DNA of 64,000 nt, taken from contig LR778114.1 of assembly GCA_902809825.1 (NCBI GenBank), positions 1,116,001 through 1,180,000 of the forward strand, in the 5' to 3' direction. Numbering within the stretch: position 1 is the stretch's first letter; the number at the start of each line of letters is the position of its first letter. Source of the DNA: Candidatus Hydrogenisulfobacillus filiaventi (GTDB lineage: Bacteria; Bacillota; Sulfobacillia; Sulfobacillales; R501). Shown piece after piece: positions 3,134 through 47,634 of this stretch. The translations under genes were made by a program, and so were the position numbers. A model generated the notes under the pieces. It was given only the letters and a program-made list of their open reading frames with translations. It was not told the DNA's origin and did not search any database.

Positions 3134-4749
3134 CCGTGCCGGCCCTCAGTCCTCGTGAACGGCTCATCTTTGCCCGCGAGCTGGCCTCCTGGCCCCTGCT
3201 GGAGGCGGAAACCGGGCGGCTGGACCTGCACCGGTACCAGCTGATCACCTTGATGCGGGCGGTGCACCGCCTGCAGGGGCGGGCCATCCTGGCCGATGAG
3301 GTGGGGCTGGGGAAGACGGTGGAGACCGGGCTCATCCTGCAGGAGTTGCGGGCGCGGGGCCTGGTGCGGTACGCCCTCATCCTGGTCCCGGCCGGGCTCA
3401 AGAGTCAGTGGCAGGCGGAACTGGCTGCCCGCTTCGGCTGGACGGCGGGGGAGGACGCCCGCCAGCCCGGGTGGCTGTGGGTGCTGTCGTTGGCGGCAGC
3501 CAAACGGTCCCCCCTGCGCGAGCAGCTGGCGGCGGTCCCCTGGGACCTAGTGGCGGTGGACGAGGCCCACCAGCTCAAGAACCCCCGGACCTTCAACCAT
3601 GCCTTGGTGCGGACCCTGACGGCCCGGTACCTGCTGCTCATCACCGCGACGCCCCTGGAAAACCGCCTCGAGGAGCTGTATGCGCTGGTGGACTTGGTGC
3701 GCCCCGGCCTCTTCGGGTCCTACCTGGCCTTTTACCGCCGGTTCATCCTGGCGCCCCGTACCCCCCGCACGCGCGAGGAACTGCGCACCCTGCTCGACCA
3801 GGTCCTGGTCCGGCACCGGCGGGAGGAGACGGGCTTGGCGCTGCCGCCGCGGGAGGTGGTGCTGTGGCCCATCCGGCCCGACCCGGCCGAAACCGCCCTC
3901 TATCACCGCCTGGAAGCGCTGGTGCGGGCGGAATACCGCCGCCGCCGGGACTCCCGGGGCACGGTGCTGCCCCTGCTCACCCTGGAGCGGGAACTCTGCT
4001 CGTCGCCCGCCGCCCTGGCTCCCACCCTGCGTGCCAGCAGCTGGCTGGGACCGCAAGGCGGGGAGCTGGCCGCGGCGGCGGCCGCCCTGGAGGAGACCGC
4101 TAAGGCCCGCGCCACCCTGGAGGTCATCCGCCACGCCGACGGCCAGGTGCTGGTTTTCACCGGCTTCCGGGGCACCCAGGAATGGCTGGTGCGTTTCCTG
4201 ACCGCGCGGGGAGTGGAGGCAGCGGCCTTCCATGGCGGCCTGTCCGCGGCCGAACGGGACCGTCTGCTGGCCTGGTTCCGGCAGGGGGGCCGGGTGCTGG
4301 TCTCCACCGAGGCCGGTGGCCAGGGGCTCAACCTGCAGTTCTGCCATCACCTGGTCAACTTCGACCTGCCGTGGAACCCCATGCGCATTGAACAGCGCAT
4401 CGGGCGGGTGCACCGGGTGGGTCAGGTGCACCCCGTCCAGATCTATAACCTTTTTGCGGCCGGCACCTTGGAGGAGGATATCCTCTACCTGCTGCACGAC
4501 AAGATCGACCTGTTCCGGCAGGTTATCGGCGAGCTTGACGTCATCCTGCGTCACCTGGAACGGCGGGGCAGCCTGGAGAGCCGCCTGCTCGATATCCTGG
4601 CCGGGGAGGAGGACCGGGCGGAAGTGCGCCGGCGGCTGGACGCCCTGGCGCGGGAGTTCGCGGCCGCCCGGCGGCGGATCGAGGGTCTCACGGCCCCGGC
4701 GTCCGGGGCAGCAGGGCCTGGGCAGGAGTCCCCGGGGCCGCTACACTGA
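3130..4749 (+). CDS. SNF2/RapA-type DEAH helicase
   Basis: A 539-residue superfamily 2 ATPase of the SNF2 class, which translocates on double-stranded DNA and remodels bound protein. Walker A is ADEVGLGKTVE (Lys62), Walker B is VAVDEAHQLKN (DEAH at 144-147), motif III TATPLENR, and the C-terminal lobe has AFHGGLS, STEAGGQGLNL and RIEQRIGRVHRVGQ. No extra DNA-binding domain is evident. The GTG start overlaps the stop of the LigD polymerase (GTGA), so it is the fourth gene in the Ku-LigD run. A repair function is inferred from this context; by sequence alone it could be a general helicase. Confidence 0.9.
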   Translation: MTVPALSPRERLIFARELASWPLLEAETGRLDLHRYQLITLMRAVHRLQGRAILADEVGLGKTVETGLILQELRARGLVRYALILVPAGLKSQWQAELAARFGWTAGEDARQPGWLWVLSLAAAKRSPLREQLAAVPWDLVAVDEAHQLKNPRTFNHALVRTLTARYLLLITATPLENRLEELYALVDLVRPGLFGSYLAFYRRFILAPRTPRTREELRTLLDQVLVRHRREETGLALPPREVVLWPIRPDPAETALYHRLEALVRAEYRRRRDSRGTVLPLLTLERELCSSPAALAPTLRASSWLGPQGGELAAAAAALEETAKARATLEVIRHADGQVLVFTGFRGTQEWLVRFLTARGVEAAAFHGGLSAAERDRLLAWFRQGGRVLVSTEAGGQGLNLQFCHHLVNFDLPWNPMRIEQRIGRVHRVGQVHPVQIYNLFAAGTLEEDILYLLHDKIDLFRQVIGELDVILRHLERRGSLESRLLDILAGEEDRAEVRRRLDALAREFAAARRRIEGLTAPASGAAGPGQESPGPLH

Positions 4750-42685: not shown

Positions 42686-44074
42686 GTGAGCGCACCGCGT
42701 TACTTTATCCGCACCTACGGCTGTCAGATGAACGAACGGGACTCCGAAATCCTGGCCGGCCAGCTGGAGCAGCTGGGCTATCGTCCGGCCAAGGACGAGA
42801 CGGCCGCCGACCTGGTGGTGGTCAACACCTGTGCCGTGCGGCACAGTGCCGAAAGCCACGCCTTCGGGTACATCGGCGGCCTCAAGGAGCTGAAGGATCA
42901 ACGCCGCGGCCTGCGGATTGCCGTGGCGGGCTGCATGGCCCAGGAACCGGAAACCGTGGCCTGGTTGCGGCGTCATGCCCCCCATGTGGACCTGGTGTTC
43001 GGCACCCACAACCTCCATCGCCTGCCGGAGCTGCTGGAGAGGGCGGAGGCGGCGGGGGAGATGGTGGTGGACGTCTGGGACAGCGCCGGCGAGGTCCAGG
43101 AACACCTGCCCAGCCGGCGGCGGGCGGGCCGCCGGGCCTTCGTTAACGTCATCTACGGCTGCGACAAGTTTTGCACCTTTTGCATCGTACCCTATACCCG
43201 CGGGCGGGAACGGTCCCGGCGCCCGGAGGCGGTGCTGGAGGAGGTCCGGGCGCTGGCGGCCGAGGGATTCAGCGACGTCACCCTGCTGGGCCAGAACGTC
43301 AATTCCTACGGGCATGACCTCGACCCGGCGGCGGACCTGGCGGATCTCCTGACCGCGGCCGCCGCGGTGCCGGGCATCCGCTGGGTGCGCTACCTTACCT
43401 CGCACCCCAAGGATTTCTCGTCCCGGCTTATTGCCGCCATCGCCGGGGACCCCCGCATCACCCGCCACCTGCATCTGCCGGTGCAATCGGGCAGCACCCC
43501 GGTGCTGAAGCGCATGAACCGCAAGTACACGGCTGAACAGTACCGCGACCTGGTGGCCCGCATCCGGGCCGCCATCCCGGACGTGGTCCTCACCACCGAC
43601 ATCATCGTCGGCTTTCCGGGGGAGACGGAGGCGGACTTTGCCGCCACCCTGGACCTGGTACGCGACCTGCGGTTTGATGCCGCCTTCACCTTCCTGTACT
43701 CGGCGCGGGCAGGGACGCCCGCCGCCCGCTGGGAGGCCCGGGAACCGGTGCCCAACCCGGTGAAGAAGGCCCGCCTCAACCGGTTGATGGAGCTTCAGTA
43801 CGCCATCAGCCTGGAGGCCAACCAGGCTTGGGTGGGGCGGCAGGAAGTGGTGCTGGTGGAAGGGGTCAGCCGGAAGAATCCGGGGGTCTGGAGTGCCCGC
43901 ACCCGGGACAACAAGGTGGTCCTGCTGGACCGGGATCCGGGGGTGGAGCTGGCGGACCGGTTCGTGCCGGTCCGCATTACCGGGGCACGCACCTTCTACC
44001 TGACCGGGGAAGTGGCCGGAGCCCCGTTGGATGATCCGCTGCCGCCGCGGGATGTGGCGCTGCCGCTGGCCTGA
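42686..44074 (+). CDS. miaB: tRNA-2-methylthio-N6-dimethylallyladenosine synthase
   Basis: A 462-residue radical SAM methylthiotransferase acting on A37 of tRNA. It has the UPF0004 domain with three cysteines (YGCQMNERDSE, NTCAVRHSA, AGCMAQEP), the radical SAM motif GCDKFCTFCIVPYTRG, HLPVQSGST, and a C-terminal TRAM domain. Length and order match Bacillus YmcB/MiaB. RBS GAGGAGG precedes the GTG start at 42686. Confidence 0.96.
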   Translation: MSAPRYFIRTYGCQMNERDSEILAGQLEQLGYRPAKDETAADLVVVNTCAVRHSAESHAFGYIGGLKELKDQRRGLRIAVAGCMAQEPETVAWLRRHAPHVDLVFGTHNLHRLPELLERAEAAGEMVVDVWDSAGEVQEHLPSRRRAGRRAFVNVIYGCDKFCTFCIVPYTRGRERSRRPEAVLEEVRALAAEGFSDVTLLGQNVNSYGHDLDPAADLADLLTAAAAVPGIRWVRYLTSHPKDFSSRLIAAIAGDPRITRHLHLPVQSGSTPVLKRMNRKYTAEQYRDLVARIRAAIPDVVLTTDIIVGFPGETEADFAATLDLVRDLRFDAAFTFLYSARAGTPAARWEAREPVPNPVKKARLNRLMELQYAISLEANQAWVGRQEVVLVEGVSRKNPGVWSARTRDNKVVLLDRDPGVELADRFVPVRITGARTFYLTGEVAGAPLDDPLPPRDVALPLA

Positions 44075-44091: not shown

Positions 44092-45441
44092 ATGTGGGCC
44101 GGCCGGGGATGGCAATGGGTGGTGGCGCTGTTCCTGCTGGCGCTGGTGGCGGTCTACTGGGTGCAGGAGGTCCGGCTCGACCGCTGGCAGCGGAAGGTGG
44201 CGGAGCTGTACGACCAGCTGGGCAGCCTGGACCTGATGCGCTCGCTGGGCCAGGCCGGGCCCGCCGATCTGCCGCGGGCGGTGGCGGAGCTGCTGACCGA
44301 CCTGGTGCCCCGCTGGGGACTCAGCTGGGCGGCCGCCTGGTCCTGGCAGGGGGAGGGGCTGGAGCTGGTGGCCGCTACCCGGGAGCCGTTGCCCGGGCCG
44401 GGGCCGCGGGTGCCGGGAGCGCTGGTGGTCCCGGAGCAGGGATTGGGGGTGGCGGTGCGGACGGGCCGCCCCCGCTATACCGGGCGGGAGGAGGAGGCCG
44501 AAGGCTTCCTGCCCGGGGTACGGAGCGGCCCCTGGGCCGCGCTGCCGCTGGGTGAGGGGCCGCCCTGGGGCGTGCTGCTGCTGGTGCGCACCGAGGGAGG
44601 ACGGCGGGGCGATCCCTGGCCGCCCGAGGTGCGGGCGGGGCTGGAGCGCTTTGCCCGGCAGCTGACCCTGCTGCTGGCGCAGTGGCAGCTCCGGGAGGAG
44701 CGGGCCCGGGCCGAGACCGACCGCCGGCTGGCGCGTCTGCGCAGCGAGCTGCTGCAGACCGTCTCCCACGAGCTGCGGACCCCCTTGGGCCTCATCAAGG
44801 GCTACAGTGCCACCTTGCGCACCCAGGCCGACCGTCTGGCCGAGGAGACCCGGCGGGAGTTCCTGGCGGTGATCGAGGAGGAGGCCGATCGCCTGAGCCT
44901 GCAAATCGATCGCATCCTGGAAGCCTCCCGGCTGGAGGCTGCGGGGGCCCCGTTGCGTCCGGAGTGGGTCAGCGCCGCCGGCCTGCTGCGGGAGGCGGCC
45001 CGGCGCTCCGCCCGCACCGTGCCGGGGGCGGCGGCGGTAGAGGTGACGGCGGAAGCCGGGATGGTATGGGGAGACCCCCAGGACCTGGGGATGGTGCTGG
45101 ACAATCTGCTGGAAAACGCCCTCAAATACGGGGCTCCACCGGTGGAGCTGCGGGCGCGGCGGCAGGGGACGGAGTGGGTCTTCACGGTGGCCGACGCCGG
45201 ACAGGGGGTGGAAGAGGGGGAGGTTGACCGCCTGTTCGAGCGCTTCTACCGCAGCCCCCGCCATCGTACCCGCTGGCGGGGGACCGGTCTCGGGCTGGCC
45301 ATTGCCCGGCGGGTGGTGGAGGCGCATGGCGGGCGCATCACCGCCCGCAACCGCCCGGGCCGCGGGCTGGAGGTAGAGGTCCGGCTGCCGGCAGGCCCTC
45401 CGGTAGGGGGACGGGAGGAGGGTGCGGCGGATGGTCCGTGA
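44092..45441 (+). CDS. Sensor histidine kinase (KdpD C-terminal-like)
   Basis: A 449-residue membrane kinase: one N-terminal transmembrane helix (residues 8-24), a short coiled coil, a GAF-like domain (about 55-195), HisKA with [18 protein letters not shown] (His226) and an HATPase domain with [21 protein letters not shown] and [18 protein letters not shown]. In KdpD the GAF-HisKA-HATPase part is the C-terminal half. Here the KdpD N-terminal module is a separate gene two positions downstream (46168). Overlaps the response-regulator start by 11 bases. Confidence 0.88.
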
Positions 45442-46159
45442 GGGGGAGCTCATCCTGGTGGTGGAGGACGAGCCCAAATACCGCCGCCTGCTGGCGGTCA
45501 ACCTCAAACTGGCGGGATTCCGCGTGGCCGAGGCCGCGGACGGGGCAGCCGCCCTGCGGTTCCTTTTTGAGGCCGAGCCGGACCTGATCCTGCTTGACCT
45601 GCTGCTGCCCGATCGGGACGGCTTCAGCCTGCTGGAGCGGGTGCGGGCCTTTACCCGGGCGCCGGTGATCATGGTGACCGCCCTGGACCGCAAGGACGAT
45701 ATCATCCGTGGCCTCAACGAAGGGGCCGACGACTACGTCACCAAGCCCTTCAGCCCGGAGGAGGTGGTGGCGCGCATCCGGGCTGTGCTGCGCCGGGGCC
45801 GCGACCCGGGACCCGCTCCCGCCCGCATCCTGGAATGCGGCCCCCTACGGCTGGACGGGGATCGCCGGCGGTTGGAGGTAGCCGGCCGGGAGGGGGTCTC
45901 CCTTACCCCCACCGAATGGCGGATGCTGGCCGAGCTGATGCGCCACTGCGGGCGGGTGCTGACCCATGAGCAGCTTCTGCAGCGGGTCTGGGGACCGGAA
46001 TACCGGGACGATCTCGAGTACCTGCGGGTATATGTGCGCCGGCTGCGGGGGGTAGTGGAGCCCGACCCCCGGCATCCGCAATACCTGATTACGGTGGCAG
46101 GTGTGGGCTACGTGCTGTACCCGGCCCCCCACGGGGCGGCGGGTCGTGAGGGGAGATAG
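45431..46159 (+). CDS. KdpE/OmpR-family response regulator
   Basis: A 242-residue two-component regulator: receiver domain with acidic pair VEDEP, phospho-acceptor Asp56 in [21 protein letters not shown] and KPF, then a winged-helix DNA-binding domain containing [20 protein letters not shown] and [10 protein letters not shown]. The order kinase-regulator-KdpD module suggests the regulator answers potassium or osmotic signals. ATG 45431 is preferred because GGAGG is well placed; GTG 45422 is too close. Confidence 0.92.
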
Positions 46160-46167
46160 GACGAGCG

Positions 46168-47316
46168 GTGGCATCCATCTACAAGCGCCGCACGCCGGAG
46201 GAGATCCTGGCCGATATCCGCCGCATGAGCCGCGGCAAGCACCGCATCTACCTGGGGGCGGCCCCCGGCGTGGGCAAGACCTATACCATGCTGGAAGATG
46301 CACACCTAGCCAAACGGCAGGGCATCGACGTGGTGGTGGGGGTGGTGGACGCCCACGGGCGGGCCGAGACCCAGGCTCTGCTGGAAGGGCTGGAGGCCAT
46401 GCCCCTTAAACCCGCCACCTACAAGGGGGTGCCGGTACAGGAACTGGATGTGGAGGCGGTGCGGGAGCGGGCTCCGGATGTGGTGCTGGTGGACGAGCTG
46501 GCCCATACCAATGCCGACGGCATGCCGCACGCTAAGCGGTGGGAGGATGTGCAGGAGCTGCTGGACGCCGGGATCAGCGTGTGGTCGACGCTAAACATTC
46601 AGCACCTGGAAAGCCTCAACGACACCGTCCGGCAGATCGTCGGCGTGCGGGTGCGGGAGACGGTCCCGGATTCGGTGGTCCGGGAGGCGGACGAACTGCG
46701 GCTGGTCGACCTGCCCCCGGAGGCGCTGATCGAACGGCTGAAACAGGGCAAGGTATACGCGGGCCGTACGGCCGATCGCGCCTTGCAGCATTTCTTCCGG
46801 GCCGGTAATCTGACGGCGTTGCGGGAGCTGGCGCTCCGGATTGTGGCGGACGAGACCGACGACCGCCTGGAGCGGTACATGGACTCCCATGATATCGAGG
46901 GGCCCTGGCCGGTGCAGGACCGCATCATGGTGGCCATCACCCCCTCCCCCAACGGGGCGCGGCTCATCCGGCGCGGCTACCGCATCGCCCGCCGCTTGAA
47001 GGCGGAGTTTTATGTGGTGATTGTGCGGCCGCCGGAGGGGTCGTTCAGCGCCCGCGACGAAGTCAGCCTGGCCACCAATCTGGCCCTTGCCCGCCAGTTC
47101 GGGGCCAAGACGGTGGAGCTGCGCAGCGCCAACGTGGCGCGGGCACTGGTGGATTTCGCCAAGGAGCACCACATCACCCAGATCGTGATGGGGGAATCAT
47201 TGCGCACCCCCTGGCAGGAGTTCACGCGCGGGTCGGTGATCAACCAGGTGCTGCGCCAGACCAGCAACATCGACATCCTGGTGGTCGGTAAGGAATGGGA
47301 TCGCGGGGAGGCCTGA
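46168..47316 (+). CDS. Stand-alone KdpD N-terminal sensor module with universal-stress domain
   Basis: A 382-residue protein containing only the cytoplasmic front half of KdpD: the KdpD domain with Walker-like GAAPGVGKTYTM, VVDAHGRAETQALLEGL, VLVDELAHTN and STLNIQHLESLND (about residues 20-235), then a universal-stress-protein domain (about 250-378). The membrane helices and kinase of full KdpD (about 890 residues) are absent. In other bacteria the second domain binds cyclic di-AMP. No kdpFABC pump genes are in the window. It probably modulates the preceding kinase. Confidence 0.92.
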   Translation: MASIYKRRTPEEILADIRRMSRGKHRIYLGAAPGVGKTYTMLEDAHLAKRQGIDVVVGVVDAHGRAETQALLEGLEAMPLKPATYKGVPVQELDVEAVRERAPDVVLVDELAHTNADGMPHAKRWEDVQELLDAGISVWSTLNIQHLESLNDTVRQIVGVRVRETVPDSVVREADELRLVDLPPEALIERLKQGKVYAGRTADRALQHFFRAGNLTALRELALRIVADETDDRLERYMDSHDIEGPWPVQDRIMVAITPSPNGARLIRRGYRIARRLKAEFYVVIVRPPEGSFSARDEVSLATNLALARQFGAKTVELRSANVARALVDFAKEHHITQIVMGESLRTPWQEFTRGSVINQVLRQTSNIDILVVGKEWDRGEA

Positions 47317-47328
47317 AGGGGTGCACGG

Positions 47329-47634
47329 ATGTCCTTGACGTTAAGCCATGTCTTATGGGTGGTCCTGACCACCGTAGTGGGGGCGGTGGCCGGGCGGGCG
47401 GTCCGCACCCGTTCCCGCCGGCTCCGGTTCCTGAAGGATACGGTGCGGGCGTGGGTGTTCGGGCTGGGCCTGGTGGCGGTCGTGGCCTATCTGGCGGCGG
47501 TCCACGCCTCCGATATCGCCAAGTTCGGTCTGGCCGGCCTGTACATCGGGGCCTTGTACGGTCTGTTTGCCTCCGATCCCCGTCCCCGGCCGGGGCGGGC
47601 GGCGGGCCCTAAGGACGGCTCAGGGCCCCGCTGA
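47329..47634 (+). CDS. Hypothetical membrane protein
   Basis: Not recognised. The 101-residue product has a hydrophobic segment at about residues 8-24, a basic loop with TRSRRLRFLKD, and two further segments (43-58 and 66-81), then a polar tail. It starts 12 bases after the KdpD-like gene and may be cotranscribed with it. Its last 26 bases overlap the converging GH18-like gene. Confidence 0.6.
   Translation: MSLTLSHVLWVVLTTVVGAVAGRAVRTRSRRLRFLKDTVRAWVFGLGLVAVVAYLAAVHASDIAKFGLAGLYIGALYGLFASDPRPRPGRAAGPKDGSGPR

What the first reader, a model, noticed from the sequence alone, without database searches (positions are those of the whole stretch)
44092..47316. KdpD split into two genes around its response regulator, without the Kdp pump
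A membrane GAF-HisKA-HATPase kinase, a KdpE-like regulator and a separate KdpD N-terminal/universal-stress protein lie in a row with overlaps. The sensing half has no membrane segment, so it must act as a soluble partner. No kdpFABC genes are nearby.
Basis: partly seen in the sequence, partly recalled or inferred. Interest (0 to 1): 0.5.

Follow-up and report, generated by a model that had tools for sequence, protein, structure and literature searches.

The report
Potassium-pump regulators relocated from their pump
Three neighbouring genes look like a taken-apart version of the KdpD/KdpE potassium-sensing system; the pump they most likely control is present after all, about a million bases away on the same chromosome, so this is an unusual arrangement of a known system rather than a new one.

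Summary
The three genes are real: a histidine kinase (44092-45441), an OmpR-type response regulator (45422-46159) and a stand-alone KdpD-N/USP protein (46168-47316). "Without the Kdp pump" holds only locally: the genome's one kdpA sits in a kdpFABC operon 1.06 Mb away. A KdpE-type direct-repeat box stands before that operon and has no other exact match in 2.57 Mb. In 14 of 21 genomes with this regulator it lies beside kdpA; in six, this one included, it lies after miaB. KdpD-N and kdpA co-occur in 36 of 41 genomes; the two mismatches are under 65% complete. KdpD-N keeps the published serine-kinase residues except a Trp (Tyr here), and KdpB keeps the target serine. Best reading: the kinase/regulator pair drives kdpFABC in trans, and KdpD-N phosphorylates KdpB to switch the pump off. 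KdpD in two chains is published (Deinococcus, cyanobacteria, a 5495-species survey). New: the serine-kinase chain is in a row with the two-component pair, not the pump, and the histidine kinase is a sister of KdpD's kinase half with a different membrane part, half of it lost in this copy. Against: five relatives with the same order also carry another two-component system at kdp.

The parts
44092..45441 (+). Histidine kinase, 449 aa: one N-terminal membrane segment, GAF-like region (by homology), HisKA, HATPase_c. Sister of the KdpD kinase half; shorter at the N-terminus than its family (541-569 aa).
45422..46159 (+). OmpR-type response regulator, 245 aa; sister group of KdpE; orthologs beside kdpA in 14 of 21 genomes
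46168..47316 (+). Stand-alone KdpD-N/USP protein, 382 aa; presumed atypical serine kinase for KdpB
46231..46854 (+). KdpD domain (PF02702, residues 22-229) with Walker A and Walker B
46918..47286 (+). Universal stress protein domain (residues 251-373), presumed ligand-sensing part
47329..47634 (+). 101-aa protein with two hydrophobic segments, 12 nt after KdpD-N; may be co-transcribed, role unknown
42686..44074 (+). miaB, fixed left neighbour of the locus in the order (not part of the mechanism)

Best explanation
A dispersed KdpDE system that works in trans on the genome's single kdpFABC operon. (1) The HK senses K+ shortage or a linked signal through its GAF region and single membrane segment and phosphorylates the RR (inferred). 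(2) The RR binds the 11-bp direct-repeat box upstream of kdpF and turns on kdpFABC, 1.06 Mb away (inferred from comparative evidence; binding not shown). [quoted passage not shown] coli and D. geothermalis biochemistry and conserved residues). Being coded with the regulators, the off-switch would be made with them and not by read-through of the pump operon (inferred).
For: One kdpA, in a kdpFABC operon, in the genome, and no HK or RR like the ones tested in the 19-kb stretch around it. One PF02702 protein. KdpD-N and kdpA: both in 36 of 41 genomes, neither in 3, one alone in 2 (59% and 63% complete). RR orthologs (52% identity or more) in 21 of 41 genomes, all with kdpA; 14 within 2.4 kb of kdpA, 6 after miaB, 1 on a contig without a kdpA match. 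RR in a clade with kdp-adjacent RRs (100/98), sister to KdpE (joint 100/97), apart from all 7 OmpR-family paralogs of the genome; HK core likewise (clade 95/95, joint with KdpD 100/99). TTTTAYN5TTTTAY upstream of kdpF is the only exact match in the genome; TTTAYN6TTTAY also matches once, there, against 4 matches of the reversed control. Box with up to one mismatch in 31 of 40 kdpA-upstream regions, shuffles mean 0.56, maximum 4. KdpD-N keeps Walker A, Walker B Asp-Glu and R190; KdpB keeps TGES. Two diadenylate cyclase domains in the genome.
Against: No expression, binding or phosphorylation data. All five other genomes with HK-RR-KdpD-N after miaB (G010, G015, G022, G024, G033) also have a LuxR-type RR and its kinase divergent from a kdp operon, so there the miaB-side pair need not be the kdp regulator; the window's genome shows none at its kdp. 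The box patterns were written after seeing this promoter. The box lies between kdp and a divergent hemE ORF, so it could belong to hemE. G003 and G005 have the RR beside kdpA but no box. With one mismatch allowed the pattern has 2 genome matches and its reversed control 3. No box at the HK-RR-KdpD-N locus. HK-RR and KdpD-N separate in 4 of 10 genomes. E. coli W39 is Tyr here (Tyr or Phe in 24 of 24 other sequences from the order; Tyr in D. radiodurans). Only 2 of 5 c-di-AMP motif residues. The HK lacks the first membrane segment and loop of its family, so its input may have changed.
Confidence: 0.68

Rival explanations
1. KdpD rebuilt in trans: KdpD-N docks on the HK, and the two chains together act as one KdpD sensor for the RR; phosphorylation of KdpB is secondary or absent.
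For: The three genes are packed together in 6 of 10 miaB-side loci; the HK core is sister to the KdpD kinase half; in E. coli KdpD both parts are one chain.
Against: KdpD-N stays at the locus without HK-RR in 4 of 10 genomes and lies beside kdp genes in 20 of 37 genomes; all serine-kinase residues but one are kept; the isolated E. coli KdpD domain works on KdpB alone (PMC11018627).
Confidence: 0.15
2. The HK-RR pair is a regulator with a target other than kdp (for example genes near miaB-rpsB or hemE), which happens to stand beside KdpD-N; only KdpD-N belongs to the Kdp system.
For: Five relatives with the same order have a LuxR-type two-component system at kdp; the RR scores best against RpaB, PhoB and MtrA models, all below cut-off; the HK is truncated; 4 of 10 loci lack the pair.
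Against: 14 of 21 orthologous RRs lie within 2.4 kb of kdpA; sister position to KdpE; kdp box conserved and single in this genome; no other HK or RR found at this genome's kdp.
Confidence: 0.13
3. A decaying remnant: the relocated HK lost its first membrane segment and is losing function, and kdpFABC is expressed without this control.
For: HK 449 aa against 541-569 aa in 8 family members; HK identity to relatives only 32-34% at the miaB side.
Against: Open frames, intact H-box and ATPase motifs; box kept before kdp.
Confidence: 0.04

Closest known systems
Deinococcus radiodurans kdpBAC-kdpD-N with separate sensor kinase and response regulator (DR_B0081-0088; PMC5716572, passages seen)
   Same: Stand-alone KdpD-N/USP protein; separate HK and RR; kdp responds to K+ limitation.
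   Different: There KdpD-N follows kdpC and the HK/RR are divergent neighbours; here all three lie together, far from the pump. The D. radiodurans RR has no match to the window RR at 1e-15 but matches RRs that lie near eight kdp operons of other Sulfobacillales; the one scanned is LuxR-type.
KdpD/Usp serine-kinase chain plus TM/GAF/DHpCA chain class of the Silberberg 2024 survey (PMC11018627; abstract and sections 7, 8 and 9 part 1 read)
   Same: Same division of labour on two chains, named there as the most common two-chain combination.
   Different: Of D. [quoted passage not shown] here it is not. The HK's membrane part is not KdpD-like.
NCBIfam NF038185, KdpD-like non-kinase potassium sensor
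   Same: Match over 371 of 373 positions, E 1e-138.
   Different: 462.6 bits, below the curated 550-bit cut-off; none of 41 genomes passes it.
E. coli KdpD/KdpE and its kdpFABC site (PMC3264566, passages seen)
   Same: RR sister to KdpE; direct repeats with 11-bp period upstream of kdpF.
   Different: KdpD in two chains, regulators unlinked to the pump, different membrane domain.

Membership tests
Stand-alone KdpD-N/USP (atypical serine kinase) proteins | KdpD domain + USP domain and nothing after them | tested here: met
   PF02702 22-229 and Usp 251-373 of 382 aa
Stand-alone KdpD-N/USP (atypical serine kinase) proteins | Walker A, Walker B Asp-Glu, adenine-coordinating Trp/Arg pair (E. coli W39/R190) | tested here: inconclusive
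   Walker A, D109/E110 and R190 met; W39 is Tyr, as in D. radiodurans
Stand-alone KdpD-N/USP (atypical serine kinase) proteins | Phosphorylates the TGES serine of KdpB | not testable with these tools
   Target serine present in the genome's KdpB (position 160); activity needs an experiment
NCBIfam NF038185 KdpD_non_kinase | Score above the curated cut-off of 550 bits | tested here: not met
   462.6 bits
c-di-AMP-binding KdpD USP of Firmicutes, motif (A/G/C)XSXSX2N(Y/F) | Five motif residues | tested here: not met
   A kept, S244 is Thr, S246 kept, N249 is Gly, Y271 is Ile: 2 of 5 (motif from PMC8214093 passages). D. radiodurans KdpD-N has 1 of 5, and the KdpD of its congener D. geothermalis is reported to respond to c-di-AMP, so failing the motif does not exclude binding
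KdpD histidine kinase, C-terminal half | Kinase core groups inside KdpD | tested here: inconclusive
   Sister, not inside: own clade 95/95, KdpD clade 100/99, joint 100/99 (30 rows, thin sampling)
KdpD histidine kinase, C-terminal half | Four-segment DUF4118 membrane domain before GAF | tested here: not met
   No PF13493 in the window HK nor in its 6 scanned family members; present in both scanned KdpD-clade kinases, L098 and L119
KdpE response regulator | Groups inside the KdpE clade | tested here: inconclusive
   Sister to KdpE (joint 100/97), not inside it
KdpE response regulator | Binds a direct-repeat box upstream of kdpFABC | not testable with these tools
   Box present and the sole exact match in the genome; binding not tested

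The most novel reading that the evidence does not exclude
The HK/RR clade here is an unfused sister lineage of KdpDE: its kinase never joined KdpD-N in one chain and carries a different membrane part. The present order, with the serine kinase placed among the transcriptional regulators and away from the pump, would set off-switch and on-switch of the pump as one regulated ratio, and the shortened HK would read an internal signal through GAF rather than K+ outside.
Probability: 0.2. Interest if true: 0.5.

Novelty: new variant of a known kind. Interest (0 to 1): 0.32.

Why it matters
It shows that the KdpD serine-kinase chain need not stay in the pump operon, unlike in the species for which a 2024 paper notes that it does. 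Among the 41 genomes of the order searched, pump, regulators and serine kinase lie in several different arrangements. That natural variation makes it possible to ask which link is essential: kinase to regulator, or serine kinase to pump.

Tried and rejected
Rfam search (gathering thresholds) of 19 kb around the kdp operon and of 14 kb around the window locus, for a c-di-AMP (ydaO) riboswitch or any other family: no match.

AlphaFold model of the HK from a 4-sequence alignment: mean pLDDT 58.5, too poor to confirm GAF; no fold search was made.

The first HK tree lost 5 of 7 paralogs and one KdpD because my H-box pattern missed them, and the first RR tree lacked one of 7 paralogs because of a length filter. 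Both were redone with all of them, and I cite. The redone HK tree left out D. radiodurans HK, a very long branch; kinship with KdpD became better supported (the window's clade went from 93/94 to 95/95).

Plasmid searches with KdpD-N and RR: of the 60 KdpD-N rows listed many are annotated full-length KdpD of Rhizobium and kin; of the 30 RR rows listed, two lie beside an annotated KdpD and three more beside a KdpD match by position. Not used further.

Paper searches: (KdpD terms; Sulfobacillus with kdp terms, listing only; Alicyclobacillus with kdp terms, listing only) listed no paper on this arrangement; the library is open-access only and the lists were capped, so this says little.

TrkH search of the genome: no match; other K+ uptake families were not searched.

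Considered and rejected: assembly artefact (miaB-HK-RR-KdpD-N recurs in 5 further genomes, with rpsB on the far side in 4 and the contig ending in the fifth); full-length KdpD broken by a frameshift (the HK lies before, not after, KdpD-N, with the RR between); HK start called too late (the frame upstream is closed by a stop within 20 codons).

Full report
WHAT IS THERE. The window lies at 1,116,001-1,180,000 of a single-contig genome of 2.57 Mb; the nearest loci by KdpD-N in the genome collection belong to Sulfobacillus and unclassified Bacillota MAGs. miaB (42686-44074), HK, RR, KdpD-N and a 101-aa membrane protein run in one direction, with gaps of 17, -20, 8 and 12 nt; a GH18 gene on the other strand and rpsB follow. 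Domains: HK HisKA and HATPase_c; RR Response_reg and Trans_reg_C; KdpD-N PF02702 (E 1e-94) and Usp. A crude scan found no promoter-like site between them. KdpD-N matches the solved domain 2r8r and the S. aureus KdpD USP domain 7ji4.

THE PUMP IS NOT MISSING. The genome has one KdpA, at C1:97028-98662. The stretch L003 holds KdpF (PF09604), KdpA, a KdpB (P-type ATPase domains) and KdpC. tblastn with the window HK and RR, the D. radiodurans RR and the G017 LuxR-type pair finds nothing else in the 19 kb at 1e-6. Only one PF02702 protein exists in the genome, that of the window. The distance is 1.06 Mb.

WHO GOES WITH WHOM. Among 41 genomes of the order, own one included, NF038185 matches 37 and kdpA matches 37: both in 36, neither in 3 (G008, G013, G036), one without the other in 2 (G039 and G040, 59% and 63% complete). 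By hand (hypergeometric) that is p about 0.0015, not corrected for relatedness. NF038185 would also match full-length KdpD, but the open frames of the matches are 340-455 aa, or 765-1050 aa where two KdpD-N modules share a frame. Of the 37, I count KdpD-N beside kdp genes in 20, after miaB in 10, and on other or uninformative contigs in 7. Of the 10 after miaB (rpsB seen beyond in 9; the tenth contig ends first), six have HK and RR before KdpD-N (G000, G010, G015, G022, G024, G033) and four do not (G006, G016, G017, G028). RR matches of 52% identity or more occur in 21 of 41 genomes including this one; the next lie at 50% or less. By position against, 14 lie within 2.4 kb of kdpA, six after miaB, and one (G038:C233) on a contig without a kdpA match. 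All 21 genomes have kdpA. The KdpD-N tree does not make the HK/RR-bearing loci one clade, so the history (one move with losses, or several moves) is open.

PHYLOGENY. With all seven OmpR-family paralogs of the genome included (35 rows), the window RR, five other miaB-side RRs and three RRs from directly upstream of kdpA form one clade (100/98), sister to KdpE including E. coli's (joint 100/97). The HK cores (30 rows) agree: window and kin 95/95, KdpD clade 100/99, both together 100/99 against PhoR and seven paralogs. Sampling outside these is thin. Among the 25 curated models shown for the RR, RpaB, PhoB and MtrA score above E. coli KdpE, all below cut-off, so 'KdpE-like' rests on the tree and on gene neighbourhood.

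THE KINASE IS A VARIANT. Eight family members after miaB or beside kdpA are 541-569 aa; in 7 of 8 the hydropathy scan shows a first segment near the start and another about 70-95 residues on, in the eighth only the latter. In the six scanned, GAF-type models match below E 1e-3 (above cut-off in four), followed by HisKA and HATPase_c, and none has DUF4118. The window HK is 449 aa and begins at the second segment; its frame upstream is closed by a stop within 20 codons. Six other genomes have a separate kinase in the KdpD clade beside kdp; the two scanned carry DUF4118 and GAF. A third kind, a GAF-HisKA_3 kinase with a LuxR-type RR, is divergent from kdp in eight operons of seven genomes, all of genus g6. 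These seven include all five other genomes with HK-RR-KdpD-N after miaB, which counts against simply assigning the miaB-side pair to kdp there; the window's genome lacks that third kind at its kdp.

A BOX AT THE PUMP. The 126 bp between a divergent hemE-like ORF and the first small ORF of the kdp operon hold TTTTACGGCTTTTTTAT: two TTTAY repeats 11 bp apart, the geometry published for E. coli KdpE (TTTATA and TTTACA with a 5-bp gap; PMC3264566 passages). The box could in principle serve the divergent gene. TTTAYN6TTTAY has one match, this one; its reversed control has 4. Of 42 kdpA-upstream regions that I had fetched (one search lists more kdpA matches), two too short were dropped; of the other 40, 17 have the exact box and 31 have it with up to one mismatch; dinucleotide shuffles give means of 0.01 and 0.56 and the reversed regions 0 and 4. 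Close relatives are not independent. The nine without it include G016 and G028, which have no RR match above 46%, but also all regions of G003 (three) and G005 (two), which have the RR next to a kdpA, and one region each of G014 and G015. The G000 HK-RR-KdpD-N locus has no box with up to one mismatch; the window has one two-mismatch match far away at 3730, where shuffles give 0.22. I wrote both patterns after seeing the promoter.

THE SERINE KINASE. The E. coli KdpD domain phosphorylates KdpB Ser162 with Walker A, Asp109/Glu110, Arg190 and Trp39, and the short D. geothermalis KdpD does so under c-di-AMP (PMC11018627; sections 7, 8 and 9 part 1 read). The window protein keeps all of these except Trp39, which is Tyr as in D. 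radiodurans; the genome's KdpB keeps TGES. The genome has two diadenylate cyclase domains. Of five USP residues of the Firmicute c-di-AMP motif (PMC8214093 passages) two are kept, so the ligand is uncertain.

SHOWN AND INFERRED. Shown by sequence: the parts, the pump elsewhere, the co-occurrence, the neighbourhoods, the box, the conserved residues. Inferred: HK to RR phosphotransfer, RR binding to the box, phosphorylation of KdpB by KdpD-N, its ligand, and co-transcription.

KNOWN OR NEW. Split KdpD is in print: D. radiodurans and cyanobacteria (PMC5716572 passages), and a survey of 5495 species in which a KdpD/Usp chain plus a TM/GAF/DHpCA chain is the commonest two-chain form. Of D. radiodurans, Anabaena and A. 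[quoted passage not shown] The order seen here, serine-kinase chain with the two-component pair and away from the pump, departs from that, hence 'new variant of a known kind', of moderate interest.

Noticed in passing
L107, L108, L109, L110 and the table: 16 of 41 genomes carry KdpD-N matches in adjacent pairs (G032 has two pairs; one copy in G025 has an internal TAG). In G001 and G009 two KdpD-N modules sit in one open frame (756 and 1044 aa, two PF02702 stretches each), a double KdpD-N; frames of 842 and 828 aa in G011 and G007 suggest the same but were not scanned. In the 8 modules aligned from four genomes, Walker A, Walker B Asp-Glu and R190 are kept.
   Followed up: partly
L118:3719-5794 (-) and seven similar loci (L114, L115, L116, L120, L121, L123, L129): A GAF-HisKA_3 kinase with a LuxR-type response regulator is divergent from kdp in eight operons of seven genomes of one genus; its regulator resembles that of the Deinococcus kdp locus (31-33% identity).
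   Followed up: partly
L003:8784-8852: A 22-aa hydrophobic ORF between the box and kdpF, without a Pfam match; perhaps a second KdpF-like peptide or a leader.
   Followed up: no
window 47329-47634: A 101-aa protein with two hydrophobic segments follows KdpD-N; a homolog also follows KdpD-N in G016 and G028; no Pfam or NCBIfam match at the limits used.
   Followed up: no
L131 and L111, between kdpA and KdpD-N: In G002 and G027 the box lies between divergent KdpD-N and kdpA, so it could serve both.
   Followed up: no
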